From an uncultured Polaribacter sp. (GTDB lineage Bacteria; Bacteroidota; Bacteroidia; Flavobacteriales; Flavobacteriaceae): 64,000 nucleotides of DNA. Shown here one piece after another: positions 1-51,144 of the stretch (positions within the stretch are counted from its first letter, which is position 1; each line of letters starts with the position of its first letter). The position numbers and the translations under genes are program-made. The notes under the pieces were generated by a model, which worked only from the letters and a program-made list of their open reading frames with translations, was not told where the DNA came from and searched no databases. The stretch is from positions 124,001-188,000 of the forward strand of contig CALSOT010000002.1 of assembly GCA_943788045.1 (NCBI GenBank), in the 5' to 3' direction.

Positions 1-3
1 TTT

Positions 4-453
4 TTATTCTTTTTTTATCAAATCCGTTGCTTTTTTAATTCCGCAACCAATTACAAAAATTCTCGTTCTCCAGTCGTTTGTTCCACCATAAGGAATTTTG
101 TCTGTCCAATATTGAATTTCACGATTTTTAAGTTCCGATAATATTTTTTCTACATCTGAACTTTCTTTATACATTCCAATATAATTCCGATTAGAGTGTT
201 CGTCCGCTTTTATTTCTTTTAGAGCATATTGAATAGCATCTTTTTCAGTCGCAAAATATTCCAGCGTTCTTTTGTCTCCACGTTCTGTATAATACCATTC
301 ATAAAGTCCTCCATTATTTTCAATTCCACATCCTTCATAAATGAAATTTCCATTAATGCTATAACTGTTCATTGGATAACAATTCTCTTTTAACCATTTT
401 TCCAATTCTAATACAGTTGCTATTTCTGTTTCGTTTTTCAAGTTACTCGTCAT
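4..453 (-). CDS. Small cytosolic protein, possibly immunity-like
   Basis: A 149-residue protein without signal peptide or membrane segment. It has a middle block with the pattern GGLYEWYYTERG followed by FATEKDAIQYALKEI, which reminds me of small Imm-type immunity proteins (Imm59-like). That resemblance is from memory and weak. It is the second gene of a two-gene cassette: its ATG overlaps the end of the upstream ORF by 11 bases. Its stop codon is three bases from the window edge, so its cassette end lies outside. No orphan toxin gene is visible beside it. Function unknown. Confidence 0.75.
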   Translation of the reverse strand: MTSNLKNETEIATVLELEKWLKENCYPMNSYSINGNFIYEGCGIENNGGLYEWYYTERGDKRTLEYFATEKDAIQYALKEIKADEHSNRNYIGMYKESSDVEKILSELKNREIQYWTDKIPYGGTNDWRTRIFVIGCGIKKATDLIKKE

Positions 454-682
454 TTGGTTTCTTTTTGAAAATTCCGAAAACCCACTTTAGGTTTATAAAA
501 ATCAAAATCACTAAAATTATTCCTATGATTATAAATTCGTTTGTCGGAAGATTTTTAAAAGTCGGACGTTGTATTTTTTCAATTAATGCGATTGAATAAG
601 CAAATATTAAAATACCTGTCATAAATACAAGAATTGACTTTCCAATAAATTTAATTGTATTCAAAATTTGATATTTAATCAT
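443..682 (-). CDS. Small two-helix membrane protein
   Basis: A 79-residue protein with two hydrophobic segments, at about residues 15-33 and 48-66, and a lysine-rich C-terminus that probably faces the cytoplasm. It starts with ATG about 27 bases inside its cassette boundary and overlaps the following ORF by 11 bases, so the two are probably co-translated. I recognise no family. A protein this small next to a soluble acidic protein could be part of a two-component module, but nothing in the sequence proves it. Confidence 0.7.
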   Translation of the reverse strand: MIKYQILNTIKFIGKSILVFMTGILIFAYSIALIEKIQRPTFKNLPTNEFIIIGIILVILIFINLKWVFGIFKKKPNDE

Positions 683-708
683 TCAGTTTGTTAGTTTGGT
701 CAAATTGC

Positions 709-843
709 GTAGAACGTGTTTGTAAAAGATTTAGTTGCGATAGTTTAGTAATGAATTTAATAAATATTTACTGACAAAGAAAATCCGCGAGGATTTTCGT
801 AAGTTGACTAAAAGCAAGCAATTAATTTTGTAAGGTGTTGGCA
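709..843 (-). repeat. attC-like site 1 (family A)
   Basis: 135 bp. The right core, GTTGGCA at 837-843 on the plus strand, pairs with TGCCAAC at 1345-1351, the other end of the cassette carrying ORF 822-1316. The left core at 709-715 ends in AAC but has lost the usual pattern (CGTAGAAC). The body is the common family-A type with a central hairpin at 779-798 whose stem is GAAAATCC/GGATTTTC. Confidence 0.75.
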
Positions 844-1316
844 ACTGGCATTTTTTTCAGAGCTTTATTTAATTCATTTTCTCTTTGTGTCCCAATCACA
901 ATTTTTTTTCCATTTTTAAGTTCAATTGCTAACCCTTTATTTCCATTTATATTATAAACAGTTCCGTATTTACTTCCAAGTCTTATGCCGTAACCTACAA
1001 ATCCATAATTTACAATTTTCACGGATTGTATTTCACTCCATTGAATATTCTTTTTCACAAATGGAATAAAACGCATCTTAATACCGTCATCATTTATTTC
1101 TGAAATTAAAGTCATATACCAATTAAAATATATAAACCCGAAAACTCCAATAGCAAAAAATACCATTCCAACATCTGACATTGGTTTATTTCCAAATTGT
1201 TCACCCAAAATTATTTGTGTGAAAAAACCATAAACAGCGATAGTTCCAAGACCGATTAAAATTAGCCAAAACCACCATTGAGTAAATTTTTGTCTTTCTT
1301 TAAATATAATTTCCAT
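822..1316 (-). CDS. Membrane protein with PH-like domain (DUF6141-like)
   Basis: 164 residues: two predicted membrane helices (about 16-36 and 50-70) followed by a soluble C-terminal half rich in short beta-strand patterns (GIKMRFIPF, IQWSEIQSVKI, GLAIELKNGKKIVIGT). This layout is typical of small bacterial PH-like membrane proteins and resembles DUF6141. The reading frame runs through the cassette end: the last residues VANTLQN are encoded by the core and stem of attC-like site 1, and the stop lies inside that site. It is the only ORF of its cassette. The start ATG sits about 30 bases after the 5' core. Confidence 0.75.
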   Translation of the reverse strand: MEIIFKERQKFTQWWFWLILIGLGTIAVYGFFTQIILGEQFGNKPMSDVGMVFFAIGVFGFIYFNWYMTLISEINDDGIKMRFIPFVKKNIQWSEIQSVKIVNYGFVGYGIRLGSKYGTVYNINGNKGLAIELKNGKKIVIGTQRENELNKALKKMPVANTLQN

Positions 1317-1344
1317 AATATTTCTGCTGTTCGTTTTTGCTTGT

Positions 1345-1476
1345 TGCCAACGTGTTTTTATAAGGAAAGTTGCGTGTTTTAAGCACTGAAATTAACAAAT
1401 GAAACACTGATAGAAAGTCCGCGAGGACTTTCGTAAATTGGCAAAAACCAGTAATTTTTTTTATACGGTGTTGGCA
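1345..1476 (-). repeat. attC-like site 2 (family A)
   Basis: 132 bp. Plus-strand TGCCAAC at 1345-1351 and GTTGGCA at 1470-1476 bound it. The central hairpin at 1413-1432 has the stem GAAAGTCC/GGACTTTC with a CGCGA-type loop. Compared with site 1, the A-T pair next to the loop is replaced by G-C on both sides, a compensatory change. The GTTGGCAATA end pairs with TATTGCCAAC at 2068-2077. Confidence 0.8.
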
Positions 1477-1880
1477 ATAGTATTTTTCACGATTATTTCA
1501 TTCAGTTTCTGTGTATCAGATTCCGAAATTTCCTTTAAGTCAAATGTTATTTTTTTTTCATTGACTTTTGTTATTGTTAATTTTTTTTCATTCAATTCAG
1601 TCTTTTTAATTTCGTCGAAACTCAAGGATTTTCCCATAAAAGAATTAATTCTGATAACAGCTCCTTTTTTGTTCCATTGAATGTAGTTTTTGAACCAAAA
1701 CATTCTACTGAAATAAAGTGCTTGAAGTAAAAATCCAACGCCACTTATTTTCTTATTTATTTTAGGATTTTCAAATGGAATAAATTCAAATATTCCAACA
1801 AGTAAAAATATTATTGATAAAATTAAAATTGTGATTAAAAACCAATTTTTGCTCAAATTATCAAAGTGTATTTTTTTCAT
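1461..1880 (-). CDS. Membrane protein with PH-like C-terminal domain
   Basis: 139 residues with two membrane helices (about 13-32 and 45-60) and a soluble C-terminal part, VIRINSFMGKSLSFDEIKKTEL onward, that looks like a small PH-type domain. It resembles ORF 822-1316 in plan but not clearly in sequence. It shares a cassette with the small ORF upstream through an ATGA overlap. Its C-terminal IANTV is encoded in attC-like site 2, and the stop codon is inside the site, as in the neighbouring cassette. Confidence 0.75.
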   Translation of the reverse strand: MKKIHFDNLSKNWFLITILILSIIFLLVGIFEFIPFENPKINKKISGVGFLLQALYFSRMFWFKNYIQWNKKGAVIRINSFMGKSLSFDEIKKTELNEKKLTITKVNEKKITFDLKEISESDTQKLNEIIVKNTIANTV

Positions 1881-2065
1881 TTTCCCATTATTGATTTAAT
1901 TAACTTGTAAGAATATAAAATTCCGATTAGAAACATAATTCCACAAATCCAATATTCCGCTTTTGAATAATAACTTATTCCACCAAAAACTCCGAAGAAT
2001 GTCCAGATAACGTTTGCCAGAATCTCAATTATATCGTTTTTTTTATTTTTTCGGGTTTCTTTCAT
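1877..2065 (-). CDS. Small two-helix membrane protein
   Basis: 62 residues beginning MKETRKNKKND, with two hydrophobic stretches (about 15-30 and 38-55). I chose the ATG at 2065, ten bases inside the cassette boundary. A longer reading to 2182 would run through the neighbouring attC-like site and is unlikely. Its stop overlaps the next ATG (ATGA), so the pair is translationally coupled. Family unknown. Confidence 0.65.
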   Translation of the reverse strand: MKETRKNKKNDIIEILANVIWTFFGVFGGISYYSKAEYWICGIMFLIGILYSYKLIKSIMGK

Positions 2066-2070
2066 ATTAT

Positions 2071-2204
2071 TGCCAACGTGTTTGTGTATGATTTCGTTGC
2101 GTTGTTTAAGCAGTGAATTTACTAAATAAAACACGAACGGCGAAATTCCGGAGGAATTTCCCAAGTGAGCTAAAACCAGCAATAAAGTTTATACGGTGTT
2201 GTAC
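2071..2204 (-). repeat. attC-like site 3 (family A)
   Basis: 134 bp between TGCCAAC (2071-2077) and GTTGTAC (2198-2204). The central hairpin at 2142-2160 is GAAATTCC/GGAATTTC, a third version of the same stem with both strands changed. The right core belongs to the cassette of ORF 2205-2849 and pairs with TTAGGTACAAC at 2853-2863. Confidence 0.8.
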
Positions 2205-2849
2205 CTAGTTTTTTCTTTTCCATTTTGTTAAAATACTATCAGCTTCTTTCTTTGTTATATTTCCGTAATATGGTTTTCCTGATTTTCGTTGTAAATCTCT
2301 CTTTATAAAATCAGATGTTCCACAATATAAAATATCTAAATCATAAACGGAATGATTTGCCTCAAAGTAGTTTTTATTTCCATTTTCATCTTGAAAATAA
2401 TATCTAATTGATAAAGTTTCTATTTTAACTGAATCAGTATTTTTTTCATAAACATCCATTTCAGATTCAATTCCATTTTTCCAAAAGAGTATATTCGAGT
2501 TTAACCAAATTACTTTATTCGTAAAAATTGTTTTGTCTTCAATAAATTCATTCTCAAAAGTCAATCCTGTTGGAATATTTTCCATACTGAATATTTTTCC
2601 GAATTTTGATATTATTCCGTCATTATAGTTTTCATCTTTTAGCTTATTCCAGTTTTTCCAAGATAATTTTTTAGAATTCCAACTTTTAGAAATTTCCTTT
2701 AATCCGATTTCTTTTCTCTTTGGATTAAAGTCAAAACCATATTTATTAAAAACTTTTTCTTGATTCCAAACAGAAATATAATACATCAAAATTCCGATTA
2801 CCGAAATTCCAATTATTACAAATAATGTTCTGTTTAGCAGTTTTTTCAT
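2205..2849 (-). CDS. Membrane-anchored protein of unknown function
   Basis: 214 residues with a single N-terminal hydrophobic segment (about 7-27), then a soluble, lysine- and tryptophan-rich region that should lie outside the cytoplasm. The stop TAG directly abuts the cassette core, and the ATG lies about seven bases inside the other core, so the ORF fills its cassette almost completely. The flanking core pairs over 10 bases (GTTGTACCTA). No recognisable domain. Confidence 0.7.
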   Translation of the reverse strand: MKKLLNRTLFVIIGISVIGILMYYISVWNQEKVFNKYGFDFNPKRKEIGLKEISKSWNSKKLSWKNWNKLKDENYNDGIISKFGKIFSMENIPTGLTFENEFIEDKTIFTNKVIWLNSNILFWKNGIESEMDVYEKNTDSVKIETLSIRYYFQDENGNKNYFEANHSVYDLDILYCGTSDFIKRDLQRKSGKPYYGNITKKEADSILTKWKRKN

Positions 2850-2856
2850 AAATTAG

Positions 2857-2988
2857 GTACAACGGTCTCGTATAACCGTCAGTTACGGGTTAAAGTTACT
2901 GATTTTCGGTTTAGCACTGACGTTAGCAATTCCGAGTGGATTCGGACGTAGTCGAATCCGCCGTAATTGCGGTTATACATTGTTGTGC
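2857..2988 (-). repeat. attC-like site 4 (family B)
   Basis: 132 bp between GTACAAC (2857-2863) and GTTGTGC (2982-2988). The body differs from family A: outer arms GTATAACCG and CGGTTATAC pair, followed by inner partly complementary segments around TTACGG and CCGTAA, and a long central hairpin GGATTCGGACGTAGTCGAATCC. A related copy is at 16338-16468. Confidence 0.75.
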
Positions 2989-2997
2989 ATAGTATTT

Positions 2998-3477
2998 TTA
3001 TTCTTTACATATTATTCCGTCTTGCGAAATATTTTGTCCTTGGTTTGTTGTCATTGTTGCTTTGTAATACAAACAATTATTTTCAATTTTCGTTTTGGTT
3101 ACAACAATTCCATTATTTTCATTCACCCACTTTTTATCTTCGCTCAATTCCGCTTTTGAAGAGTCATAAGTCAGTCGATAAGTACAATCATCAATCCATT
3201 CAATTATTTCATATTCAGGTATTCCATTTCCGATTCCGTTTTTCCATTCGATTTGAATACTCTTTTCTCGAACTACAATCCATTTTTTAATAGACAAATC
3301 TCGTTTCTCAGTCATTTCCGCAATACTGTCATTCGCTTCGATTGTATATTTACTCATTGCTTCAGTTTCTGGAATATAAAAAGTTCCAATTTTAAAGTCA
3401 GAACAAGTTAACTTTTGAGCACAAGAATTTAATCCGATTAGGCTCAATGTTATAAGTAGTAATTTCGTTTTTTTCAT
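2998..3477 (-). CDS. Small lipoprotein of unknown function
   Basis: About 159 residues from the ATG at 3477. An N-terminal signal with a lipobox-like SLIGLNSCAQ suggests an acylated cysteine. The remainder has TCSDFKIGTFYI, a pattern I have seen in flavobacterial cassette-borne proteins that are often misannotated, so no function is given. A GTG three codons upstream would also be in frame, but it overlaps the cassette core. The ORF fills its cassette, with cores GTTGTGCATA and TATGCACAAC at its two ends. Confidence 0.75.
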   Translation of the reverse strand: MKKTKLLLITLSLIGLNSCAQKLTCSDFKIGTFYIPETEAMSKYTIEANDSIAEMTEKRDLSIKKWIVVREKSIQIEWKNGIGNGIPEYEIIEWIDDCTYRLTYDSSKAELSEDKKWVNENNGIVVTKTKIENNCLYYKATMTTNQGQNISQDGIICKE

Positions 3478-3482
3478 ATTAT

Positions 3483-3616
3483 GCACAACGTGATTGTATA
3501 AGATTAGTTGCGATTTTGTGTGCGAGGATTTTCCGAAGGAAAATCAGACGTAACAAAAATGCAACTAACTTTGGTTAAGCACTAAACTACGCAATTTTTT
3601 ATACACGGTGTTGGCA
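3483..3616 (-). repeat. attC-like site 5 (family D)
   Basis: 134 bp between GCACAAC (3483-3489) and GTTGGCA (3610-3616). The outer arms pair loosely (TGTATAAG... and ...TATACACG). A strong inner hairpin GATTTTCC-GAA-GGAAAATC lies at 3525-3543. The inner arms TTAGTTGC and GCAACTAA are also complementary. Confidence 0.75.
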
Positions 3617-3645
3617 CGTCGTTTTTCTTTTTTTAATCTATTTTT

Positions 3646-4122
3646 TTAGTGTTTTGTAATTTCATAATTTATGAGAATCCCTTCTTTAATTTTGATTTCA
3701 ATTTCGTTTTCATAATAATGTTCAAATTTTTTTTCATCGAACAAATTCTCTCCATAACCACCAAATATTTCACCAGAAAACCAATTGACAAATACTCTTT
3801 TATTTTTGATTTCACTTTTTTCAAAATAATCTTCTAATTTCAAATCTTTCCTTTCGCAAGGTTCTTTTAATCCAATCAAATAAACTCTCTTATTTTCAAT
3901 TTTATATACTCCAATAACACCTCTCCAACACCCACTGCTCATACAATTAATATTATTATCTATTCTTTCCTTCAAAAGTAAATCAGTTTTTACTCTTTGA
4001 TTAAGAGGATAGTTTTCAATAAAAATTTTTTCATTTTTAAAATATAGTATATCTGGATATTGTTCGGTTAATATTGACTTACTTAAAAATATTAAAATTA
4101 ATATGGTCGTGAAGTATTTCAT
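3646..4122 (-). CDS. Secreted protein of unknown function
   Basis: 158 residues with an N-terminal signal peptide (hydrophobic residues about 5-18). The mature part is acidic and lysine-rich with two cysteines (NCMSSGCWRG), which may form a disulphide. It is the single ORF of a cassette whose ends pair over nine bases (GTTGGCACG/CGTGCCAAC). No family recognised. Confidence 0.7.
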   Translation of the reverse strand: MKYFTTILILIFLSKSILTEQYPDILYFKNEKIFIENYPLNQRVKTDLLLKERIDNNINCMSSGCWRGVIGVYKIENKRVYLIGLKEPCERKDLKLEDYFEKSEIKNKRVFVNWFSGEIFGGYGENLFDEKKFEHYYENEIEIKIKEGILINYEITKH

Positions 4123-4131
4123 TTAAATGCG

Positions 4132-4191
4132 TGCCAACGGACTGTGTATGGTGCGTATCCCGAAGGGTATGCACTATACACCTTGTTGGCG
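4132..4191 (-). repeat. attC-like site 6 (short form)
   Basis: 60 bp, the shortest site and the clearest hairpin. Cores TGCCAAC (4132-4138) and GTTGGCG (4185-4191) enclose an almost perfect stem in which GTGTAT pairs with ATACAC, GTGC with GCAC, and TACCC/GGGTA closes a GAA-type loop. There is one unpaired base in the upper stem. Length is at the low end of the attC size range. Confidence 0.8.
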
Positions 4192-4198
4192 GTAGTTT

Positions 4199-5191
4199 TT
4201 ATTCGACATTCAAATTTTGGTTTTCCACTATAAAATCAAAGGATAAATCTGATAAGCTTTTTCCATTCACAGTGGCACCCCAGGGACCATGACCTGCACC
4301 CTCTAATGGATAATAAACAAAATCAATTTCATTTGTTTCACATATAGTTTTTAAATCTTCAGCTCTACTAAAAGGTACGGTAGGGTCTTCTGTACCATGA
4401 GCTATAAACAATGCTGGGTCATTTGAGTCAAACCTTTGGTGTCCATAAATTGACTCCAGTATTTCTATAGATACAGTAGACCCCCAAAAGTCTAAAATTG
4501 TTTGTACTTCATAGGTTTGAGAAAGATTGGTTGTTGATAAGGTATTATCTTCACTTGAGCTTATTTCATCTTTATAGTCACCTAATTCTGATACACCTAT
4601 ACCTATTGATGTAATTGCTCCCGCTGAACCACCACCTACAGTGATATAATCTTTATTTATGTGATAGTTTTGGGCGTTAGCCATAATCCATCTTAAAGCA
4701 GCTTTAGCATCTCTGTGAGCAGGGTACATTGCAAAAATTTGGTCTAGATTTGAAGGGGTACCAACAGAAGTAGCATCAATCCATGCTTGTGGAATCGTTC
4801 CCATATGGTCTCTAAGTCTGTAGTCGATTGAAAATACAACAAAACCTCTTGATGCATAATAATTTGCCATATCCACAATGGCATCCTGTTGCTTGGAACC
4901 ACCAACAAATGCACCGCCATGAATTAACATTAGTAAAGGTCGATTTTGTGAATTATTTTCAGGAACATAAGAGTCCATATATAAAGGGAGTGCAGTTGTA
5001 TTTGAACTGTTCCAATCATCATGACTAAGTCCTTCAGCATAAATGATATCTTCTGTTATATTAACATCATAGGTAGCATTCAACTTCACTGTTGGTGAAG
5101 AACTTTCAGGTGTAACTATGTTATCATCATCTTTTTCACATGAAATCAAAGAAACCATAATTAGTAAACTTGCAAAAATCTGTTTCATCAT
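4199..5191 (-). CDS. Lipoprotein alpha/beta hydrolase (carboxylesterase-like)
   Basis: 330 residues with a lipoprotein signal ending at Cys18 (VSLISCEK). It has the hormone-sensitive-lipase-type oxyanion motif HGG at 91-93, the nucleophile elbow GGGSAG with Ser189, an acid candidate Asp269 in HGTEDPTVP, and the catalytic His candidate His301 in GAGHGPWG. The triad therefore looks complete. It probably cleaves an ester at the outer surface; the substrate is unknown. It is the largest cargo of array 1, with cores GTTGGCGGTA/TACCGCCAAC at its ends. A second ATG lies one codon downstream of the first. Confidence 0.85.
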   Translation of the reverse strand: MMKQIFASLLIMVSLISCEKDDDNIVTPESSSPTVKLNATYDVNITEDIIYAEGLSHDDWNSSNTTALPLYMDSYVPENNSQNRPLLMLIHGGAFVGGSKQQDAIVDMANYYASRGFVVFSIDYRLRDHMGTIPQAWIDATSVGTPSNLDQIFAMYPAHRDAKAALRWIMANAQNYHINKDYITVGGGSAGAITSIGIGVSELGDYKDEISSSEDNTLSTTNLSQTYEVQTILDFWGSTVSIEILESIYGHQRFDSNDPALFIAHGTEDPTVPFSRAEDLKTICETNEIDFVYYPLEGAGHGPWGATVNGKSLSDLSFDFIVENQNLNVE

Positions 5192-5253
5192 AATTTAATG
5201 TTTTAAATTTTCTTCTTAGACTCTTAAAATCATCTAAGGTTTAATTTAATTAC

Positions 5254-5384
5254 CGCCAACGTGTTTGTGTATGATTTGTGGCGTGTTTAAGTACCTAATT
5301 TTGCAAATAAAAACGGAATAGAAAATCCGCGAAGATTTTCGTAAGTAGGCGAGAACAAGCCATTAATTATAAACGGTGTTGTAA
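5254..5384 (-). repeat. attC-like site 7 (family A)
   Basis: 131 bp between CGCCAAC (5254-5260) and GTTGTAA (5378-5384). The central hairpin at 5321-5340 is GAAAATCC-GCGA-AGATTTTC with one mismatch. The right core pairs with TGTTTACAAC at 5946-5955. Confidence 0.8.
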
Positions 5385-5394
5385 ACAGTTTTTT

Positions 5395-5913
5395 TCAAAA
5401 TGATACTCTTTTTGTTTCAGGAAGATTTTTAATATCTTCTTCTTTCAAAATATTGTCAAAGATTCGGTAAAGAAAATCTTTCAATAGTTTCGCCTCTTTT
5501 TCTTTTGATTCCGTATTGAATTCCCAATCTATCTCAACATTAATTGAATCAAATGTAGATTTGAAATAATAGTCAAAACTCGGATTTACAATTACGTGTG
5601 TTGATGGTGTAAAATAATTCGGATATTTAATTATGTTATATTCCTTAATTAGCTGATAAACTCTATTTTTTTCTAAATTACTAATTTTGTAGTTTATGAT
5701 AGTGTCTTTGTCCCAATTTATTGATTTTGAAAATGTATTGTCGTAAGTATTTATACAATATTCATTACTATTTAATTTCACGATAAAATTAAAATCTTCA
5801 GGCATTTTTTCGGGATATTCATAAGAGGTCATTACTCTTTTAGTATTTAGAATTAGAATAATAGAAATAACTAATAATGTTCCTACAGATATAAAAACCT
5901 TCTTTTTAGTCAT
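5395..5913 (-). CDS. Membrane-anchored protein of unknown function
   Basis: 172 residues with one N-terminal hydrophobic segment (about 6-23) that serves as signal anchor. The remainder is soluble and mixed alpha/beta, with no motif I can name. It is the single ORF in a cassette with 10-bp complementary ends. A start at the ATG at 5913 leaves about 35 bases to the 5' core. Confidence 0.7.
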   Translation of the reverse strand: MTKKKVFISVGTLLVISIILILNTKRVMTSYEYPEKMPEDFNFIVKLNSNEYCINTYDNTFSKSINWDKDTIINYKISNLEKNRVYQLIKEYNIIKYPNYFTPSTHVIVNPSFDYYFKSTFDSINVEIDWEFNTESKEKEAKLLKDFLYRIFDNILKEEDIKNLPETKRVSF

Positions 5914-5948
5914 TAGTTTTTCGTTAGTTTTCGTTTTTCTATAATTGT

Positions 5949-6146
5949 TTACAACGGTCTAGTATATGAAACGTAGCGTGTAAAAAGACACTAGCTTTTC
6001 GAATTATACACAATACGATTTTTTAATTTTTATGTTTACTTTTTGTTTTTATAAATATAACCAAATTAAAAAATGGGTGACTTTGTAAATACATACGAAC
6101 CTTTCGGATAGCCTATATTAGCTATGTTTTATATACATTGTTGGCA
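5949..6146 (-). repeat. attC-like site 8 (family C, long)
   Basis: 198 bp between TTACAAC (5949-5955) and GTTGGCA (6140-6146), longer than the usual upper limit of attC sites (about 140 bp). The body shares blocks with sites 9 and 10: TTAATTT/AAATTAA arms, a GACTTT... stretch, and ACCTTTCGG near the right end. The right core pairs with TATTGTTGCCAAC at 6963-6975, a 13-base match. Confidence 0.7.
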
Positions 6147-6610
6147 ACAGTATTTTTCAATTCAGCGGGCTTATTATTTATTTGTTTTATTACATATGCT
6201 ATTAAAAGTCCGATTGAAAAAGTTGTCAGAATTGTACAAACAACAAATGCAATAATTGGTGGAATCATCATTAAAAATATTTCTTTCGTTACGGTAATTC
6301 CGACAATCAGACAAAAAGTTGTCCAAATTATTAAATTAACAATGGTAGAATATTTAAAGGAAGTCAGAATTAGTGATTTTCCGTTATTAATGTTTTTGTG
6401 TGCTAATTTTCCTCCAATCCAAAGAGCAATCAGGAACGCAATTACAAGTCCGACTGTTGAAGCTCCATAAGTTCCAATTATAACCATTGTCAAGAGCCCT
6501 TCACCTGTCAACAATAGAGGAATCCAAATTGTGGCAATTACGGTCAAAATTCCGATTGGTGCTCCAATCAGATAAGAGGTAAGTATGCTCTGTTTTAATT
6601 TCTTTTCCAT
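6122..6610 (-). CDS. Four-helix membrane protein
   Basis: 162 residues with four hydrophobic segments (about 10-32, 40-65, 85-105, 115-140). No motif identifies a family. Its last residues VANNVYKT are encoded within attC-like site 8, and the stop codon lies inside the site. It shares a cassette with the ORF at 6647-6928, 36 bases upstream. Confidence 0.7.
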   Translation of the reverse strand: MEKKLKQSILTSYLIGAPIGILTVIATIWIPLLLTGEGLLTMVIIGTYGASTVGLVIAFLIALWIGGKLAHKNINNGKSLILTSFKYSTIVNLIIWTTFCLIVGITVTKEIFLMMIPPIIAFVVCTILTTFSIGLLIAYVIKQINNKPAELKNTVANNVYKT

Positions 6611-6646
6611 TTTTTATAACAGTATTTTACTCAATCCGTATTTCAA

Positions 6647-6928
6647 TCAGTCTATTTTAGGTGTAGTCAAAAGCACCCAAAACCAGAAAACTGCCCAAAC
6701 AAGTCCAATTGAGTTAATAACCAGTAGTCCTATGCTTCTATTAAATCTCTTTTTGAAGGTTAGCCCTGAAAAGATTAATAAAAGATTTATAGAAACTGAA
6801 ATTGGTAAAATCAAGAGCCCATACCCCATTGGTCCACCTGAGTTTCTAAGTGTTATGAAACTGAAGGGGATAAAATACAGATTTATCAAAATCAAAAGAC
6901 TCGATATGGTCCAATTGGTTATTTTCAT
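6647..6928 (-). CDS. Small three-helix membrane protein
   Basis: 93 residues, almost entirely hydrophobic, with three membrane segments (about 4-24, 33-55, 68-88) and a GGPMGYG loop. It is the first gene of a two-gene cassette with ORF 6122-6610. The cassette ends pair over 13 bases (GTTGGCAACAGTA with one mismatch), the best match in the array. Unknown function. Confidence 0.65.
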   Translation of the reverse strand: MKITNWTISSLLILINLYFIPFSFITLRNSGGPMGYGLLILPISVSINLLLIFSGLTFKKRFNRSIGLLVINSIGLVWAVFWFWVLLTTPKID

Positions 6929-6968
6929 TTTTTATCTTTCAGTTCAAAGTTCTCTTAAGCCATATTGT

Positions 6969-7160
6969 TGCCAACGACCCGGCTATGCGTAGTGCGGGAT
7001 TTGAAAAGCGGAGTTTTCAAATTTGCACGTAGCCAAGAGTTTATATTTTGTTTTTAATTTATTCACTTTAAATACCAAATTAAAGTATTGGCGGACTTCA
7101 TTAATTGCACTGACCTTTCGTTTAGCAGAAAACCCGCATTACGTATAGCCATTGTTGGCA
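6969..7160 (-). repeat. attC-like site 9 (family C, long)
   Basis: 192 bp between TGCCAAC (6969-6975) and GTTGGCA (7154-7160). The outer arms GGCTATGCGTAGTGCGGG and CCCGCATTACGTATAGCC are nearly perfectly complementary, giving a long outer stem. The inner part shares TATATTTTGTTTTTAATTT with site 10. Confidence 0.75.
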
Positions 7161-7172
7161 GTCGTATTTTAT

Positions 7173-7901
7173 TTAATGAACATCAATTCCATCAAAATAA
7201 ATTTCAGTTATCGCTGTATCATTGTATTTGTCTCCTTTGTAAACCTCCAATATTTCAAACCTTAGAACTAAATCGCTTCCATCTTCATTGTGTCCAAGAG
7301 TTCCAATTTTAAATGTTTGGTCAGTTTTAGTATCGGTTAATTTAAGTACTCCGAATTCTTTTCCATTTACATATAACTTTAATGATTTAACACGGTTATT
7401 ATTTTTCCAAGTATTATCTGATTTCATATAACCATTTGAAATTATTATTGAAGTAATTCTGGGACTTTTGTTTTGAAACGAGTATTCAATATACTCTCCA
7501 ATACCGCTATCTTCTTTTCCTTCCACCCAAGCAGTTAAATAACTTAAATCATTTGCTGATTTAGCTTTGTAGCTATTATAGTTTTGAGTCGTCAATTCAG
7601 AAGAAGCAGAAACTTTGTAATTTCCACCACCACAATACCAACTACATCCACCGTCAACAACATCCCAAACACTTTCCACAACTTCACCATATTTTCGAAC
7701 CAAAGTATCAAGCTCTACTTTTTCAGTATCAGTTAAGTCTTCTTTTGACAACAGTTCTGTTTGTCTATCAATTTCATTTTTTGTTTCAAAACTTAGGTCG
7801 GGAGTGTAATGTCCTGAAGGTTCATATGTTTTAAGTTCATTTTGTCCATAAGAAAGAATGGAGATTAATGACACAATAAGTATTAAAGTCAGATTTTTCA
7901 T
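7173..7901 (-). CDS. Secreted protein with NADase-type glycan-binding (discoidin-like) domain
   Basis: 242 residues. Residues 1-19 form a signal peptide ending at SYGQ. A helical region follows, then a C-terminal beta domain from about residue 95. It carries the family's landmarks: ANDLSYLTAWVEGKEDSGIGEYIEYSF, then IISNGYMKS, NNRVKSLKLYVNG, LTDTKTDQTFKI and a closing VYKGDKYNDTAITEI. These match the NADase-type glycan-binding domain, which binds carbohydrate. No enzymatic domain is attached. It is the only ORF of its cassette. Confidence 0.85.
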   Translation of the reverse strand: MKNLTLILIVSLISILSYGQNELKTYEPSGHYTPDLSFETKNEIDRQTELLSKEDLTDTEKVELDTLVRKYGEVVESVWDVVDGGCSWYCGGGNYKVSASSELTTQNYNSYKAKSANDLSYLTAWVEGKEDSGIGEYIEYSFQNKSPRITSIIISNGYMKSDNTWKNNNRVKSLKLYVNGKEFGVLKLTDTKTDQTFKIGTLGHNEDGSDLVLRFEILEVYKGDKYNDTAITEIYFDGIDVH

Positions 7902-7937
7902 TTTGTTATTTTATGTTCGTTAAGATACCTTTATGCT

Positions 7938-8134
7938 TGCCAACGGACTTGTGTATGAAACGTAGCGTGTAAAAAGACACTAACTTTTCGGATAAACACA
8001 GAGCCGAATTTTTATATTTTGTTTTTAATTTTTCTCTTTTTAAAAGCCAAATTAAAAATTTGGCGGACGTTCTAAATATACACAAACCTTTCGGTTAAGC
8101 ATTTATTAGCTATGTTTTATACACCGTGTTACTT
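7938..8134 (-). repeat. attC-like site 10 (family C, long)
   Basis: 197 bp between TGCCAAC (7938-7944) and GTTACTT (8128-8134). It shares with site 8 the block GTATGAAACGTAGCGTGTAA and the right-hand CTTTCGG...TATTAGCTATGTTTTATA. The right core (GTTACTTGCA) pairs with TGCAAGTAAC at 8692-8701, so the core changed in register on both ends of that cassette. Confidence 0.75.
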
Positions 8135-8677
8135 GCAGTTTTTTTTATATTCACTCCATATTTGAAACATATCAATATCAGTCATTATTCCAAATTCAAC
8201 TCTCGGGTCACAATTCAAGTTATTATATATTATTCCATAAGGATGTTCCTCATTTTTTAAACGGTCTAGATATTTAATTCCGTTTTTCGTTGAATATTTT
8301 ATTATTCTTTCCGTTACAATTTTAACTTTTAAATCAGTTTTCGAGATTGAGTCATAAACATTTTTTGCATAAAATCCGAAATCAGAATCCACTTCATAAA
8401 GTCCTTCATTTTCATCTCCGTATTCTTTAAGTAATTCTTCGAATTCTGTTTCATTTGGATGAAAAAACAAAAGATTGTAATTGTCAATATTCAGAGTATC
8501 AAGTTTCTGTTCTGTTTTAGATTCAATTGTGTTTAATGACTTGTTTATTTTGAAATTCTCGATATTTTTTGGGGTATCTGCTTTTACTCCTTTAGCGAAG
8601 TCAAACATTTCAATTCCGAAATAGCTAATTGCAATGATTAAAACTCCAATTATTGTTATTAAAATTCCTTTTTTCAT
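8129..8677 (-). CDS. Membrane-anchored protein, N-terminus shared with a cassette in array 2
   Basis: About 182 residues from the ATG at 8677; a TTG four codons upstream is less likely. The first 38 residues (MKKGILITIIGVLIIAISYF, then GIEMFDFAKGVK) are one membrane anchor plus a short motif. They are clearly homologous to the N-terminus of ORF 17180-17632, while the C-terminal parts differ. The soluble part is acidic. Single ORF of its cassette. Function unknown. Confidence 0.7.
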   Translation of the reverse strand: MKKGILITIIGVLIIAISYFGIEMFDFAKGVKADTPKNIENFKINKSLNTIESKTEQKLDTLNIDNYNLLFFHPNETEFEELLKEYGDENEGLYEVDSDFGFYAKNVYDSISKTDLKVKIVTERIIKYSTKNGIKYLDRLKNEEHPYGIIYNNLNCDPRVEFGIMTDIDMFQIWSEYKKNCK

Positions 8678-8694
8678 TAGTTGGTTCAAATTGC

Positions 8695-8826
8695 AAGTAA
8701 CGGTTCTGTGTATGATTAGTTACGGAAAATCAGTTGTGATTTTCCTAGGAGTACACAAGTTAATTAATTCCAAGGAATTTCCGATGAGGAAATTCAGAAG
8801 TAATTAATTATACACGTTGTTGTACG
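8695..8826 (-). repeat. attC-like site 11 (family D)
   Basis: 132 bp between AAGTAAC (8695-8701) and GTTGTAC (8820-8826). Inner hairpins GGAAAATCAGTTGTGATTTTCC and GGAATTTCCGATGAGGAAATTC are visible. The outer arms GTGTAT and ATACAC pair. Body type as in site 5. Confidence 0.75.
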
Positions 8827-8832
8827 TAGTTT

Positions 8833-9552
8833 TTATTTTTTTGTTACACTATCATAAGCATCCAAGCATTCATTCAATGGTTTTCCTTTAGTATGAATGC
8901 ATTCACAAAATTCAAATCCAACAGTTTGCTTTTCAGTATTTATAAATTGTTTTTTACAATCTGATAAAGAATTTCTAGGCATTACTTCATAACCAAAAAC
9001 AAATATTGCAATTGTCAATCCAACTGTGGCAATTACTCCTGCGAAAAATAGAATTGGGAATTTATTGCTATATTTTTTTGGTTTCTCTACTATTCCGTAG
9101 TTTGAAAACTTTTTAAAAGGTAAAATATATTTTAACTTGTCATAATTCCAAACAAGGATGTATAGATTGGCAAGTACCATTAATGGTGATGTTACAAAAG
9201 ACCCTTCAAATCTAACTGCTAATGATAGTATCCAAATGTTTACAATTATTGGGAAATATAGTAAAGCACCTAATGTTACAGTTCTGGGTATTATCAATAA
9301 AATAGCTGCAAGGACTTGAGCAATCCCAATGGATGTGTAATAATAACCTGTATGATGTAAAGCTTCAAGATAAGCTCCCATTGGATGGATAATAGATAGT
9401 CCACTAGCGAATCTTTCCCCTAAAATTTTCACCATTCCTGCAACAATGAAAGCGTAGGCTAAACTTAATCGACAAAAAATTGAAAATAACCAATACCACC
9501 TATTTCCTTTTATTTTTATATAAAATTGGTCGAATGTAGTTAAAGAGTTCAA
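8833..9552 (-). CDS. DoxX-like membrane protein
   Basis: 239 residues. Four membrane helices lie in the first 150 residues, with the DoxX-like opening FCRLSLAYAFIVAGMVKILG. A fifth helix is near 175-195, then a soluble tail with three cysteines (CKKQ, FCECIHTKG). DoxX-type proteins are small quinone- or redox-associated membrane proteins; this one has an extra extracytoplasmic tail. No ATG is available: the frame has a stop just upstream, and the first start codon is TTG at 9552. Cassette cores GTTGTACGTA/TACGTACAAC flank it. Confidence 0.7.
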   Translation of the reverse strand: MNSLTTFDQFYIKIKGNRWYWLFSIFCRLSLAYAFIVAGMVKILGERFASGLSIIHPMGAYLEALHHTGYYYTSIGIAQVLAAILLIIPRTVTLGALLYFPIIVNIWILSLAVRFEGSFVTSPLMVLANLYILVWNYDKLKYILPFKKFSNYGIVEKPKKYSNKFPILFFAGVIATVGLTIAIFVFGYEVMPRNSLSDCKKQFINTEKQTVGFEFCECIHTKGKPLNECLDAYDSVTKK

Positions 9553-9576
9553 TTAATTGATGATGTTTTAAATTAC

Positions 9577-9708
9577 GTACAACGTTGTTGTGTATGATTT
9601 GTTGCGTTGTTTAAGCACTAAAGTTAGTAAATAAACACTGAATAGGAAGTCCGCGAGGACTTTCGTAAGCTGGCTAAAACCAGCAATTAATTTTATACGG
9701 TGTTGTAA
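9577..9708 (-). repeat. attC-like site 12 (family A)
   Basis: 132 bp between GTACAAC (9577-9583) and GTTGTAA (9702-9708). The central hairpin at 9646-9664 is GAAGTCC-GCGA-GGACTTTC. It is nearly identical to sites 2 and 3 in body. The right core pairs with TTTTTTACAAC at 10407-10417. Confidence 0.8.
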
Positions 9709-9713
9709 AAAGT

Positions 9714-10400
9714 TTAGTTCAGGTTTACCCACTTAATTCCATTCCACATTTTCAGATTTTTTGTTTCCGCATCATAGTATATAGTTCCTTCTTTTAATTC
9801 CTTAGGGACTTTATGAGTAGGAGTAATAATTAAGACACCTTCGATTTCTAAATCAGCATTTACATCTAATTTATCAGTTTGAAAATCTCCGTAAATTAAA
9901 GGTTTATCAGATTCAGAACTTTCAATTATCAGTTTATTAGAGAAGTTTCCATGTTTTCTACCAGCATGAGTTCCAATAACAATATTTCGATCTCCTAGTT
10001 TTCCTTGAGCTGCAGCTTTACCAATTATAACGTTATTTTGTCCTTGTACATTTCCGCCAGCATAGTTTCCTAAAATTACATTCCCATATCCTCTTGAATT
10101 TACTCCTGCATGATATCCAACTAATAAAGAATTCCTCGTCATATGCGAAGTTGCTCCTGCTGAGTTCCCTATAAAAACGTTTTCACTTGCTTTGTTATAT
10201 TTCCCAGCATCAATACCTACATAAGTTATATGTTTACCATAATAACCTTTTCCTTTTTCTATTATTCTGTAATTAGTTGTTTGTAAGCTTTTAATACTGT
10301 CATTTAATGAGTTAATTCTATTTTCAAGTATAGCGACTCTTTTACTTATTCCGCAAGAACTTAAAATTAGTAATAACACTATTGGTGTAATTTTTTTCAT
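9714..10400 (-). CDS. Lipoprotein with YadA/tail-fibre-like head repeats
   Basis: 228 residues. A lipoprotein signal ends at SSCG (Cys16). A coiled-coil stretch (about 20-45) follows. Then come several copies of a repeat with the core NVxIGxxAG (for example VFIGNSAG, SLLVGYHAG, VILGNYAG, VIIGKAAA, IVIGTHAG) at about residues 62-160. Such repeats form left-handed trimeric beta-rolls in YadA heads and tail-fibre tips. The C-terminus reads IYYDAETKNLKMWNGIKWV, a motif common before S74-type or tail-fibre ends in Bacteroidota. First cassette of array 1; cores GTTGTAAAAA/TTTTTACAAC. Confidence 0.8.
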   Translation of the reverse strand: MKKITPIVLLLILSSCGISKRVAILENRINSLNDSIKSLQTTNYRIIEKGKGYYGKHITYVGIDAGKYNKASENVFIGNSAGATSHMTRNSLLVGYHAGVNSRGYGNVILGNYAGGNVQGQNNVIIGKAAAQGKLGDRNIVIGTHAGRKHGNFSNKLIIESSESDKPLIYGDFQTDKLDVNADLEIEGVLIITPTHKVPKELKEGTIYYDAETKNLKMWNGIKWVNLN

Positions 10401-10423
10401 TTTTAATTTTTTACAACTAGTAT

Positions 10424-10480
10424 ATATGCTGATGTTATATCAGTATATCGGATGATTTTGGTAGGATATGCTGATGTTTT
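10424..10480 (-). repeat. Array-head element, copy 1
   Basis: 57-bp sequence directly upstream (minus strand) of the first cassette core of array 1. It contains a hairpin, ATATGCTGAT-gttat-ATCAGTATAT, and a second copy of GATATGCTGATG about 30 bases away. The same element lies at 27104-27160, again 5-6 bases from a cassette core. It could be an attachment site (attI-like), a leader or a promoter. The sequence does not decide. Confidence 0.7.
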
Positions 10481-10574
10481 ATGTTATTATTTATCACTTT
10501 GGCTTGCTCGTATAAACGATTTTTTCCAAATATTTTACACTTTTCAAACTTAAAATAATTATTTTTAATATCAC

Positions 10575-10610: not shown

Positions 10611-10948
10611 AAATGAATTTAGTTTTGTATGTTCTTGTTGAGGTGCTTTATCAGAACAAAAAACACTTTTTTTTGCTAGGTTTACCGCTTCTAAAACCAA
10701 ACCGTAGAGACGTTTTATTTTTAGCTATAGGCAAGTAGCCTCGAAAAGGAATTTAAAGCCGTTACATAGCTTATAAGACACCTTAAATAGCTTTTAAATT
10801 ATGTTTTAAAATGGATTAAGTCTACAGAAATAAAATGAATAGAATTGTAGTCGTGTAAAATAATCTCATTACGTTTTTTGAGCATTAAATCGGGTAGTAA
10901 TGCACCTCTTTGTTATAGCAAATAACTTTATGAAATACACTTGTCATA

Positions 10949-11061
10949 AAAACAAAAGCCCCTTAAAAAGAGACTTTTGAATACTTATTTATGTTTTTTA
11001 ATGGCTTGTGCAACGATTACCGTTGTTAGTTGTAGTTTTTTCTTAGGATTTATTTATTAAC
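10949..11061 (-). pseudogene. 3' tail of an unidentified gene with its terminator, copy 1
   Basis: On the minus strand a short open frame ends ...VIVAQAIKKHK and stop at 10985-10987, followed by an imperfect terminator-like hairpin (AAAGTCTC/GGGGCTTT). The same end, ...CCVAQATKKHK plus a perfect hairpin, is at 19423-19500. The bodies of both genes are missing. This suggests relics of the same family of lost gene or element. Family not identified. Confidence 0.5.
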
Positions 11062-16337: not shown

Positions 16338-16468
16338 GCGCAACGGTCTCGTAAACCATCAGTTACGGTATTAAATTTACTAATTTTAGTAATAGCAATG
16401 ATACTTGTAATTCCATTAAATTTCTACATATTCCAATTCGCCGTATTTATGGTTATATATTGTTAATT
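16338..16468 (-). repeat. attC-like site (array 2, family B)
   Basis: 131 bp between GCGCAAC (16338-16344) and GTTAATT (16462-16468). The body matches site 4: CGGTCTCGTAAACC...CAGTTACGG on the left and CCGTATTTATGGTTATATATTG on the right. It is the clearest intact site of array 2. Confidence 0.75.
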
Positions 16469-18429: not shown

Positions 18430-18550
18430 AAGAATAGTTGTGCGAATCACGAAGTTAATGTAGTAAATATTTATTGACTAAGAAAGTCCTTAAGAACTTT
18501 TGAAAGTAAATTAAAACCAACAATTAATTGGAGAGGGTGATGGACTCAGT
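18430..18550 (-). repeat. Degraded attC-like site (family A)
   Basis: The body retains a family-A order: ...TTAATGTAGTAAATATTTATTGACTA..., hairpin GAAAGTCC-TTAA-GAACTTT at 18482-18500, then TTAAAACCAACAATTAATT. The right end reads GGTGATGGA instead of GGTGTTGxx, and the left core is AAGAATAGT. It is probably no longer functional. Confidence 0.55.
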
Positions 18551-18552
18551 TT

Positions 18553-19341
18553 TTATTCAATCCATAAATTTCCAATTGAATAAGTTTTTGCTTTTCCGCT
18601 GATGATGACTCTATCTTTTTTATTTAGGCATTGTAATTCTCCAACTCTATCCGAAATTTGTATTGCATTAAGTTTTTCTTTTCCCAGTCTTAATGACCAA
18701 AACGGGATTAGTGAGCAATGTGCTGAACCAGTAACCGGGTCTTCTAAGATTGACGCTTGTGGTGTGAAAAATCTTGAAACAAAATCGCAATTTTCTCCTT
18801 TTGCTGTAACAATTACTCCGCCTGGATCAAGGTTTATTTGGTCAAAAAATTGTCTATCAATTTTAATATTCTCAATTTCTTGCTTTGAGTCATATACTAA
18901 CATATAATCTCTTGCTTTAAGAATTTCTTTCGGTTGTATGTTTAATGATTTTTTAATTATTTCTGGGAGTTCACAAGCAACCGGCATTCGCGAAGGGAAG
19001 TCTAAACTGTATAAATCATTTTTTATTGAAACAATTAAATCGCCACTTAAGGTTTCAAAGATTATTCTGTCTTTTGGATAATTTAAAATTGATATTAAAC
19101 AATGAGCTGTTGCCAGAGTTGCGTGACCGCATAAATCCATTTCAATTTCAGGTGTAAACCAACGTAAATGTATTTTATCACCTTTGTCAACGAAGAAAGC
19201 CGTTTCAGCAACAGCATTTTCTTTAGTAATTTTCAATAATATTTCATCTGGCAACCAATTATTCAAAGGGACAACACAAGCAGGATTTCCGCCAAATATT
19301 TTATCTGTAAATGCATCTATCTGATATCGTTCAAATTTCAT
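18553..19341 (-). CDS. PhzF-family isomerase-like protein
   Basis: 262 residues. It opens with the family hallmark YQIDAFTDKIFGGNPACVV. The catalytic glutamate candidate is in ENAVAETAFF (Glu46), and DLCGHATLATAH and late DPVTGSAHCSL are conserved PhzF signatures. PhzF enzymes isomerise or epimerise small molecules; most family members have unknown substrates. Length is normal. It lies in a cassette-like unit of array 2 with degraded ends. Confidence 0.9.
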   Translation of the reverse strand: MKFERYQIDAFTDKIFGGNPACVVPLNNWLPDEILLKITKENAVAETAFFVDKGDKIHLRWFTPEIEMDLCGHATLATAHCLISILNYPKDRIIFETLSGDLIVSIKNDLYSLDFPSRMPVACELPEIIKKSLNIQPKEILKARDYMLVYDSKQEIENIKIDRQFFDQINLDPGGVIVTAKGENCDFVSRFFTPQASILEDPVTGSAHCSLIPFWSLRLGKEKLNAIQISDRVGELQCLNKKDRVIISGKAKTYSIGNLWIE

Positions 19342-22540: not shown

Positions 22541-22910
22541 GATAAATTGAAGTATACTTATTTCATTAGATAATTCTGATTGTGGCTAACGTGGTTGTGT
22601 ATGATTTCGTTACGTGTTTAAGCACTAAAGTTAGCAAATAAAACACAGATAGAAAGTCCGCTAGGACTTTTGCAAGTGGACACTAACTAGCAATGAATTA
22701 TACATGGCTTAAGTTTGTAATTCATTAAATTAGAATTATAACAGGTCAGCAATCTGTTTTATTGCAGCGCATACAGCTTATTTTAACCACGTGCAACTTT
22801 AAAAGAAAAGCTTCTTAAATGCTTAACTAATTGGTTTTCAAGTTTTTTTTTACTTGGTAAGCTTTAGTAAACCATTAAAAATGGGTATATTAGAGCTAAA
22901 ACCGATTCAT
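22541..22910. other. Gene-free stretch with degraded attC-like site
   Basis: 22584-22710 is the degraded site described separately. 22711-22910 has no gene, only AT-rich sequence that should contain the promoter of the plus-strand secreted protein; no clear TAnnTTTG is seen. Confidence 0.5.
22584..22710 (-). repeat. attC-like site with lost right core (family A)
   Basis: Left core GGCTAAC (22584-22590), family-A body with hairpin GAAAGTCC-GCTA-GGACTTT at 22652-22670, and the usual TATACA near 22700, but then CATGGCTTAAG instead of CGGTGTTGxx. The right-hand cassette has evidently been replaced by other DNA at this point. Confidence 0.65.
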
Positions 22911-32572: not shown

Positions 32573-32597
32573 AATGTTTGTAATTTTTACAAGTCGG

Positions 32598-32605
32598 CAA
32601 AGATA
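32598..32605 (-). promoter_or_regulatory. -7 element upstream of the SulP gene
   Basis: TATCTTTG on the minus strand matches the Bacteroidota TAnnTTTG element. It is 25 bases upstream of the ATG at 32572. No TTG -33 box with good spacing is visible. Confidence 0.5.
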
Positions 32606-32614
32606 GGTTGTTTT

Positions 32615-51009: not shown

Positions 51010-51144
51010 CTATTGTTTTAAATTTAGTATGGAGCTTTTCGGTAAACCACGTTAAGGATTGAAATGACATCCTTTTTGAAGGAACGAAAAAAAGATATAA
51101 TGGAAAGCCTGTTAAAACGCCCAAAATAAATATTGACGAAAAAA

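What the first reader, a model, noticed from the sequence alone, without database searches (positions are those of the whole stretch)
1..10417. Integron-like gene cassette array with a non-canonical core in a flavobacterium
Seen in sequence: thirteen minus-strand ORFs in units bounded by GTTRnnn/nnnYAAC, separated by twelve fold-back elements of 60-198 bp; ORFs start and stop within a few bases of the cores. Established: integron cassettes are circularisable units whose ends carry GTTRRRY and RYYYAAC from a folded attC site. Here GTTR is invariant, but RRY is not, so standard attC models may miss them. Inference: this is a cassette system of Bacteroidota mobilised by an unseen recombinase.
Basis: partly seen in the sequence, partly recalled or inferred. 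Interest (0 to 1): 0.93.

Follow-up and report, generated by a model that had tools for sequence, protein, structure and literature searches.

The report
Integron without an integron integrase
In this Bacteroidota genome, genes sit in a row of units that each carry their own matching end sequences and a fold-back DNA site; a recombinase encoded beside a second such row in the same genome likely captures and shuffles them, which would make this an integron that works without the usual integron integrase.

Summary
The array is real and is a cassette array. Each gene block has its own end sequence (GTT + 7 bases) that matches in reverse complement across the gene, not across the fold-back site. 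In a blind test, on sites found with a model that never saw those 7 bases, 41 of 48 cassettes matched at 6 or 7 of 7 positions (295/336; best of 5000 permutations 171). The 'unseen' recombinase was found: contig C5 of the same genome carries a 385-aa tyrosine recombinase, a leader 84% identical to the one at the window array's start, and five cassettes (four with matching ends), one a 99.9% copy of a window cassette with breakpoints at GTT. Related recombinases, many followed by such arrays, occur in several Bacteroidota families. All 73 sites folded are more stable on the bottom strand. The recombinase lacks the ~42-aa integron-integrase insertion and scores under NCBI's integron-integrase cut-off, and 0 of 15 cores fit GTTRRRY: it works like an integron but fails membership of the IntI kind. 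Recombination itself is not shown. Whether IntI integrons descend from such systems is undecided (AU tests). Ten library searches found no description.

The parts
10418..10525 (-). attI-like leader, insertion point before GTT at 10417; 83.6% identical (alignment window 10400-10525) to the leader beside the recombinase on C5
   Evidence: no recombinase remnant beside it
9702..10417 (-). cassette 1, ends GTTGTAAAAA/TTTTTACAAC, 228-aa ORF
9581..9704 (-). site 1 (AAC..GTT)
8819..9583 (-). cassette 2, ends GTTGTACGTA/TACGTACAAC, 239-aa membrane protein (DoxX-like by eye only; no Pfam match); with site 2 it is a 99.9% copy of C5:13295-12411
8699..8821 (-). site 2
8128..8701 (-). cassette 3, ends GTTACTTGCA/TGCAAGTAAC, 186-aa ORF
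7942..8130 (-). site 3 (189 nt)
7154..7944 (-). cassette 4, ends GTTGGCA/TGCCAAC, ORF with NADase_transloc domain
6973..7156 (-). site 4 (184 nt)
6140..6975 (-). cassette 5, ends GTTGGCAACA/TGTTGCCAAC, two ORFs (93 and 162 aa)
5953..6142 (-). site 5 (190 nt)
5378..5955 (-). cassette 6, ends GTTGTAAACA/TGTTTACAAC, 172-aa ORF
5258..5380 (-). site 6
4185..5260 (-). cassette 7, ends GTTGGCGGTA/TACCGCCAAC, esterase (BD-FAE); gene block identical in C5:9907-8832 but with other flanking sites
4136..4187 (-). site 7 (52 nt)
3610..4138 (-). cassette 8, ends GTTGGCACG/CGTGCCAAC, 158-aa ORF
3487..3612 (-). site 8
2982..3489 (-). cassette 9, ends GTTGTGCATA/TATGCACAAC, 162-aa ORF
2861..2984 (-). site 9
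2198..2863 (-). cassette 10, ends GTTGTACCTA/TAGGTACAAC, 214-aa ORF
2075..2200 (-). site 10
1470..2077 (-). cassette 11, ends GTTGGCAATA/TATTGCCAAC, 139-aa ORF
1349..1472 (-). site 11
837..1351 (-). cassette 12, ends GTTGGCAAC/GTTGCCAAC, 164-aa ORF
713..839 (-). site 12; its right core is GTTCTAC
1..715 (-). cassette 13, window part (runs to C2:123990), two ORFs (79 and 149 aa); the array goes on outside the window with two more cassettes

Best explanation
The window holds a gene-cassette array in which every gene block carries its own matching ends (GTT plus seven bases) and is followed by a fold-back site, and a tyrosine recombinase, encoded on another contig of the same genome beside a second such array, likely excises and inserts these cassettes by recombining the folded bottom strand of the site at the GTT triplet. 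Shown: cassette-specific ends, one cassette shared by two arrays with breakpoints at GTT, a recombinase with an attI-like leader directly before the second array, the same layout in relatives, and a predicted folding bias to the bottom strand. Inferred: that the recombinase cuts at GTT, that it uses the single bottom strand, that the leader is the main insertion point (attI), and that the window array, which has a leader but no recombinase beside it, is served in trans from C5. In this reading a circular cassette has one site whose two outer arms (7 nt + AAC and GTT + 7 nt) pair fully; on insertion the arm before the gene and the arm after it stay with the cassette while the site's GTT end meets the next cassette, which is why complementarity is seen across genes and not across sites.
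For: Own-end rule, blind test: sites found with a profile of nine window sites reaching only from AAC to GTT; 73 full-length sites; 48 cassettes between neighbouring sites; 295 of 336 positions match, 41 of 48 cassettes at 6-7 of 7, permutation mean 123.6, maximum 171, 0 of 5000 reach it; outside the own genome 34 of 39 cassettes in 10 loci; across the sites 207 of 490. Copy with cassette breakpoints: C5:13295-12411 = C2:133583-132699, 99.9% over 885 nt, GTT to GTT, with the leader on the left in one and a site in the other. Recombinase and leader on C5; R243, K268, K271, H332, R335, H358 and Y367 invariant in the 53 aligned rows (catalytic roles recalled). Adjacency in relatives: a 10-nt own-end cassette starts within 400 nt after the recombinase stop in 21 of 60 loci, against 4 of 75 upstream and 2 of 60 reversed (three of the 21, L071, L080 and L092, do not resemble the leader motif and may be chance). 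Leader motif ATATAANNA|GTT within 350 nt of the stop in 24 of 71, reversed control 1 of 71 (motif written after seeing some of the leaders). Orientation: 59 of 59 site hits in relatives lie on the recombinase's strand. Bottom-strand bias: 73 of 73 excised-form sites fold better on the bottom strand, mean -25.7 against -22.0 kcal/mol, difference 3.66 against 0.99 for letter shuffles of 40 of the 73; in the 16-pair inner stem 164 cells are G.T on the bottom strand only, 4 on the top strand only, of 1168 cells, with changes on both sides at several columns. A homologous cassette in another genus (L186) has GTTGTGCGTA/TACGCACAAC where the window has GTTGTACGTA/TACGTACAAC, a change at both ends that keeps the pairing.
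Against: No recombination was observed; all of this is footprint and prediction. Gene content between strains of one species could not be compared. Only 8 of 80 recombinase loci have a cassette chain above the best control score of 22, and 39 of 60 show no 10-nt own-end cassette near the stop; many of these contigs end soon after the recombinase. Seven of 48 cassettes do not match at 6 or more; in two of them a site that the model misses lies in between (window site 7; a 184-nt site in L043), one C5 cassette (about 10715-10030) truly has ends that match at only 4 of 7, the rest were not resolved. Of the three in-register homologs of cassette 2, one keeps paired ends (L186), one only in part (L187) and one has no right end (L188). 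Six of 31 site-bearing genomes searched have no homolog above about 35% identity (G651, G452, G402 and G453 with Xer-like hits only, G384 and G420 with none). The esterase block is identical in both arrays (0 mismatches in 1051) while the sites on both sides differ, which a simple gene+site cassette does not explain. Of the 164 bottom-only wobble cells, 142 sit in three columns, the sites are related, and five of the 73 sites were counted out of register. Shuffled sites also favour the bottom strand slightly.
Confidence: 0.85

Rival explanations
1. A canonical integron or CALIN: ordinary attC sites recognised by an IntI integrase, merely divergent.
Against: Score under the 265-bit cut-off; the region between KGKKDR and HTLRH is 73-76 aa in the printed insertion-less rows (XerD 80) against 115 aa in eight canonical IntI; 0 of 15 cores fit GTTRRRY and 0 of 15 RYYYAAC; no TIGR02249 match at E 1e-40 in the own genome; the site model finds nothing at E up to 1 in ten loci from outside, seven of them with canonical IntI, 134 kb.
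Confidence: 0.06
2. A fossil: once mobile cassettes, now moved only by homologous recombination or by the host XerC/XerD; the recombinases beside the arrays are passengers.
For: The window array has no recombinase beside it; lone or decayed sites lie at window 16342-16464, 18432-18529 and 22588-22710; the esterase copy with different sites looks like homologous exchange.
Against: The C5 reading frame is open over 385 aa and keeps the residues invariant in 53 rows; one cassette is 99.9% identical between arrays with breakpoints at GTT; recombinase, leader and first cassette stand together in many genera.
Confidence: 0.08
3. The fold-backs are RNA hairpins (terminators or regulators) between genes of an ordinary accessory region, and the cassette look is incidental.
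For: The sites lie between genes on one strand and contain hairpins; a promoter-like TAnnTTTG box occurs in 10 of 27 leaders (3.7% in shuffles), though in neither of the two own leaders.
Against: No Rfam match at gathering score in the array; RNA would be the top strand, but the fold is better on the bottom strand in 73 of 73; end matching across genes has no role in a terminator.
Confidence: 0.01

Closest known systems
Integrons with an IntI integrase (class 1 and sedentary chromosomal integrons)
   Same: Array of mostly one-gene cassettes, fold-back site after each gene, conserved GTT/AAC triplet, bottom-strand folding bias, ends that belong to the cassette, an attI-like leader beside the recombinase gene. 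Bottom-strand use and the AAC crossover are as read in passages of PMC4792948; GTTRRRY in a passage of PMC9892861.
   Different: Recombinase lacks the IntI-specific insertion and carries about 100 extra N-terminal residues; core is GTT + 7 free bases instead of GTTRRRY; inner stem of 16 pairs; on C5 the recombinase is codirectional with the array (canonical intI is usually divergent, recalled), though a related short type is divergent (L240).
Integron-like subgroup of tyrosine recombinases (PMC8138268, passages)
   Same: Described as holding integron integrases whose insertion is not fully conserved, so insertion-less relatives may already sit in it.
   Different: The passages seen tie no cassette arrays to insertion-less members and call the insertion essential for integron function.
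CALIN (attC cluster lacking an integrase, defined in PMC9024848, passages)
   Same: The window array has sites and a leader but no recombinase beside it.
   Different: Cores are not canonical; the likely recombinase is on C5 of the same genome.
XerA/XerC/XerD chromosome-dimer recombinases
   Same: Highest Z with archaeal Xer chains (4a8e 22.6 at rmsd 9.6, 5hxy 20.6 at rmsd 15.8); no insertion.
   Different: Stands beside cassette arrays, has an N-terminal extension, and scores under the XerA, XerD and XerC cut-offs. The genome has XerC and XerD elsewhere.
CALIN of Polaribacter phage P12002L (PMC9892861, passages)
   Same: The site model finds four sites there (58.6, 43.5, 40.7, 36.5 bits, E below 1e-4); one unit has 10 of 10 matching end bases, two have 8 of 10 (no control run).
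   Different: Published as canonical attC sites; in the phage the genes between the sites are annotated on the strand opposite to the sites. Whether its tested attC1/attC2 are these sites could not be checked, since supplements could not be read.

Membership tests
IntI integron | Integrase over the integron-integrase family cut-off (TIGR02249, 265 bits) | tested here: not met
   186.7 bits, in two stretches; no match at E 1e-40 in the own genome
IntI integron | IntI-specific additional domain around patch III | tested here: not met
   73 aa against 115 aa in eight canonical IntI; the alignment to 2a3v breaks there
IntI integron | attC cores GTTRRRY / RYYYAAC | tested here: not met
   0 of 15 and 0 of 15
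IntI integron | Cassette-specific ends, exchange at the GTT triplet | tested here: met
   295 of 336 in 48 blind cassettes; copy breakpoints at GTT; cutting itself untested
IntI integron | Fold-back site with better folding of the bottom strand | tested here: met
   Predicted for 73 of 73; wobble asymmetry 164 to 4
IntI integron | attI beside the integrase gene, first cassette at it | tested here: met
   By sequence and position only: C5 leader and leader motif in 24 of 71 loci; function untested
IntI integron | Integrase-dependent excision and insertion | not testable with these tools
   needs an assay
CALIN | Two or more attC sites of the canonical model, no integrase nearby | tested here: inconclusive
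   No recombinase remnant near the window array; IntegronFinder's attC model was not at hand
XerA/XerC/XerD | Score over the equivalog cut-off | tested here: not met
   XerA_Arch 209.2 of 220, XerD 169.3 of 329.6, XerC 159.4 of 335.15

The most novel reading that the evidence does not exclude
A second kind of integron: a Bacteroidota-wide cassette system run by tyrosine recombinases that never had the IntI-specific domain, with longer cassette-specific cores, found also in a lytic Polaribacter phage; either the older form from which IntI integrons arose or an independent invention of single-strand gene capture.
Probability: 0.5. Interest if true: 0.93.

Novelty: new variant of a known kind. 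Interest (0 to 1): 0.86.

Why it matters
Integron integrases are described as having a specific domain for folded-site recombination (PMC4792948 abstract; PMC9668308 and PMC8138268, passages, call it necessary or essential). If recombinases without it run folded-site cassette arrays, that domain is not needed for single-strand gene capture, and the origin of integrons becomes testable. It would also open a large cassette pool: the site model hits 64 of 296 sampled genomes of the phylum, whereas among the 75 genomes with an IntI-model match in another sample of 247, only one of the own class is over the cut-off (how many own-class genomes were sampled is not printed).

Tried and rejected
Rfam at gathering score: nothing on the array, only Flavo-1 at 51041. 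Pfam on 20 cassette ORFs: over the gathering score only NADase_transloc, the esterase models and Acyl_transf_3, so no common function. XerC/XerD of the genome as the movers: not excluded for orphan arrays. Canonical attC by pattern and arm pairing in 25 loci: nothing found, so no use as a comparison, the threshold probably being too strict; GTTRRRY chains in 14 loci: length 0-2 against controls 0-2. A lone site near a canonical IntI (L246) has a decayed left core, so I do not count it as a shared site. Tree: 85 recombinases hand-picked from the loci (broken or short ones dropped); canonical IntI (18 rows) one clade, SH-aLRT 100, placed among insertion-less rows (a first tree with 3 Xer rows, agrees), but the AU tests reject none of three groupings (p 0.361, 0.528, 0.453), so no origin is claimed. 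First structure model poor (pLDDT 62.7); the second, from 53 sequences, 88.0. The N-terminal domain was not searched alone. No TTG box in front of TAnnTTTG in any of 27 leaders. One site against the phage collection by blastn: no match, although the site model finds sites in one phage record. Literature: ten searches listed no paper that describes such a system, judged from titles and abstract starts; subscription papers and preprints are not held. Read in passages only: PMC9024848 (only In0 earlier in Bacteroidetes, then a complete integron in Salinibacter), PMC9668308, PMC8618304, PMC9892861, PMC8138268, PMC4792948, PMC8352920 (109: eleven taxon attC models, Bacteroidota not named).
Full report
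WHAT IS THERE. The minus strand of window 1-10417 carries gene blocks separated by 12 fold-back sites of 52-190 nt. The window is C2:124001-188000 of a 2.9 Mb genome in 8 contigs. The array continues to C2:122028 with two more cassettes. Each block begins with GTT and seven bases and ends with the reverse complement of those bases, wholly or nearly: GTTGTACGTA..TACGTACAAC, GTTACTTGCA..TGCAAGTAAC, GTTGGCGGTA..TACCGCCAAC. In 16 units 105 of 112 positions match within the unit, 44 of 105 across the sites; one of the units was later assigned to an inserted element, and boundaries were partly chosen by the match.

BLIND TEST. I built a profile from nine sites of the array cut at AAC and GTT, so that the seven bases were not in it, and searched the window, its flank, C5 and 80 recombinase loci. 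It found 73 full-length sites. Of 48 cassettes between neighbouring sites, 41 match at 6 or 7 of 7 positions; in total 295 of 336, against a permutation mean of 123.6 and maximum of 171 in 5000. Outside the own genome 34 of 39 cassettes do. Across the sites 207 of 490 positions match. Of the seven that fail, two span a site that the model misses (window site 7; a 184-nt site in L043), one on C5 has ends that match at 4 of 7, four were not resolved. The pattern is what circular cassettes with one site leave behind when they are inserted at the GTT triplet.

THE RECOMBINASE. The genome has five matches to the phage-integrase family: XerD, XerC, a 418-aa one, a fragment, and a 385-aa one on C5. 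The last is followed on its own strand by a leader and cassettes at 13295-12531, 12413-11687, 11567-10836, about 10715-10030 and 9907-8832. The leader is 83.6% identical to the one before the window array, beside which no recombinase remnant was found. The first C5 cassette is a 99.9% copy (885 nt, GTT to GTT, gene plus site) of window cassette 2, with a different neighbour on each side. So the window array is likely served in trans.

RELATIVES. One scan of named genomes gave 80 loci. Cassette chains lie beside the recombinase in Flavobacteriales ALC-1 (12), Algibacter (9), Aurantibacter (8), Arundinibacter (7, the first of them doubtful) and Flavobacterium selenitireducens (6 and 5); 8 of 80 loci exceed the best reversed control (scores 68 to 26 against 22, 20, 18). 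Within 400 nt after the stop a 10-nt own-end cassette starts in 21 of 60 loci, against 4 of 75 upstream and 2 of 60 reversed. A leader motif ATATAANNA|GTT is found in 24 of 71, control 1 of 71. All 59 sites in relatives lie on the strand of the recombinase. In another group (L240) a short recombinase, open frame 282 aa, stands divergent from its array. Homologs of the recombinase at E up to 1e-30 occur in 218 of 299 genomes of the family, most of the listed ones at about 40% identity. A covariance model of 39 sites finds 21 places in the own genome at E up to 0.01 and hits in 64 of 296 genomes of the phylum. In 25 of 31 site-bearing genomes the recombinase has a homolog above about 35% identity, two of these only as fragments (my count from its table). 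One 882-nt cassette matches in 226 of 397 family genomes, most of the rows listed covering only its last 140 nt, the site; in three genera the gene's similarity starts at base 1 of the cassette.

SITE STRUCTURE. The sites have an outer arm (GTT + 7), a spacer that is three bases longer on the right in 68 of 73, and a 16-pair inner stem. In the excised form the bottom strand folds better in 73 of 73. The stem departs from Watson-Crick pairing mostly where the bottom strand can still pair G.T: 892 Watson-Crick cells, 164 bottom-only wobbles, 4 top-only wobbles, 108 others of 1168. Integron attC sites are known for bottom-strand use (PMC4792948, passages).

PHAGE LINK. Polaribacter phage P12002L was reported to carry a CALIN, and one of its sites (attC2) recombined with attI1 through IntI1 on the bottom strand with no clones for the top strand (PMC9892861, passages). 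The site model finds four sites there at E below 1e-4, with a unit GTTGGCAGTA..TACTGCCAAC (10 of 10); the genes between those sites are annotated on the opposite strand. I could not check whether the tested sites are these. It suggests that cassettes of this system can ride on phages.

LIMITS. No activity was measured, no within-species comparison was possible, and one shared gene (the esterase) is identical while both flanking sites differ, which the simple model leaves open.

Noticed in passing
window 4185-5260 and C5:8832-9907 (L009): The esterase block is identical over 1051 nt in both arrays, but the sites before and after it differ; a gene moved without its site, or its site was replaced.
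   Followed up: partly
window 10927-11029, C2:121929-122032 and window 19483: A stretch with GGTAA[CT]CGTTGCACAAGCC and a terminator-like hairpin lies on both sides of the array; in G001 (L241) similar elements with inverted GTTGCACAAG ends appear to sit inside sites, perhaps a small mobile element that targets them.
   Followed up: partly
window 16342-16464, 18432-18529, 22588-22710: Lone or decayed sites outside the array; the PhzF-like gene (by eye) 18553-19341 ends beside one of them, and its homolog in G387 (L245) sits beside an intact site.
   Followed up: partly
L045 11932-12098, 18816-18983, 19158-19324, 19500-19667: Four cassettes of 167-168 nt with one and the same end GTTACTTGCA, too short for a usual gene: perhaps gene-less cassettes, in Flavobacterium selenitireducens.
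   Followed up: no
L240 (G342) and L241 (G001): Short recombinase without the N-terminal domain, divergent from its array as in canonical integrons (for G001 read from the positions).
   Followed up: partly
L251 (NC_028924) 30952-32924: Cassette-like units of this kind in lytic Polaribacter phage P12002L, one spanning a DNA methyltransferase gene on the opposite strand.
   Followed up: partly
window 51041-51118: Flavo-1 RNA (Rfam RF01705), 43 bits, gathering score 42.
   Followed up: no
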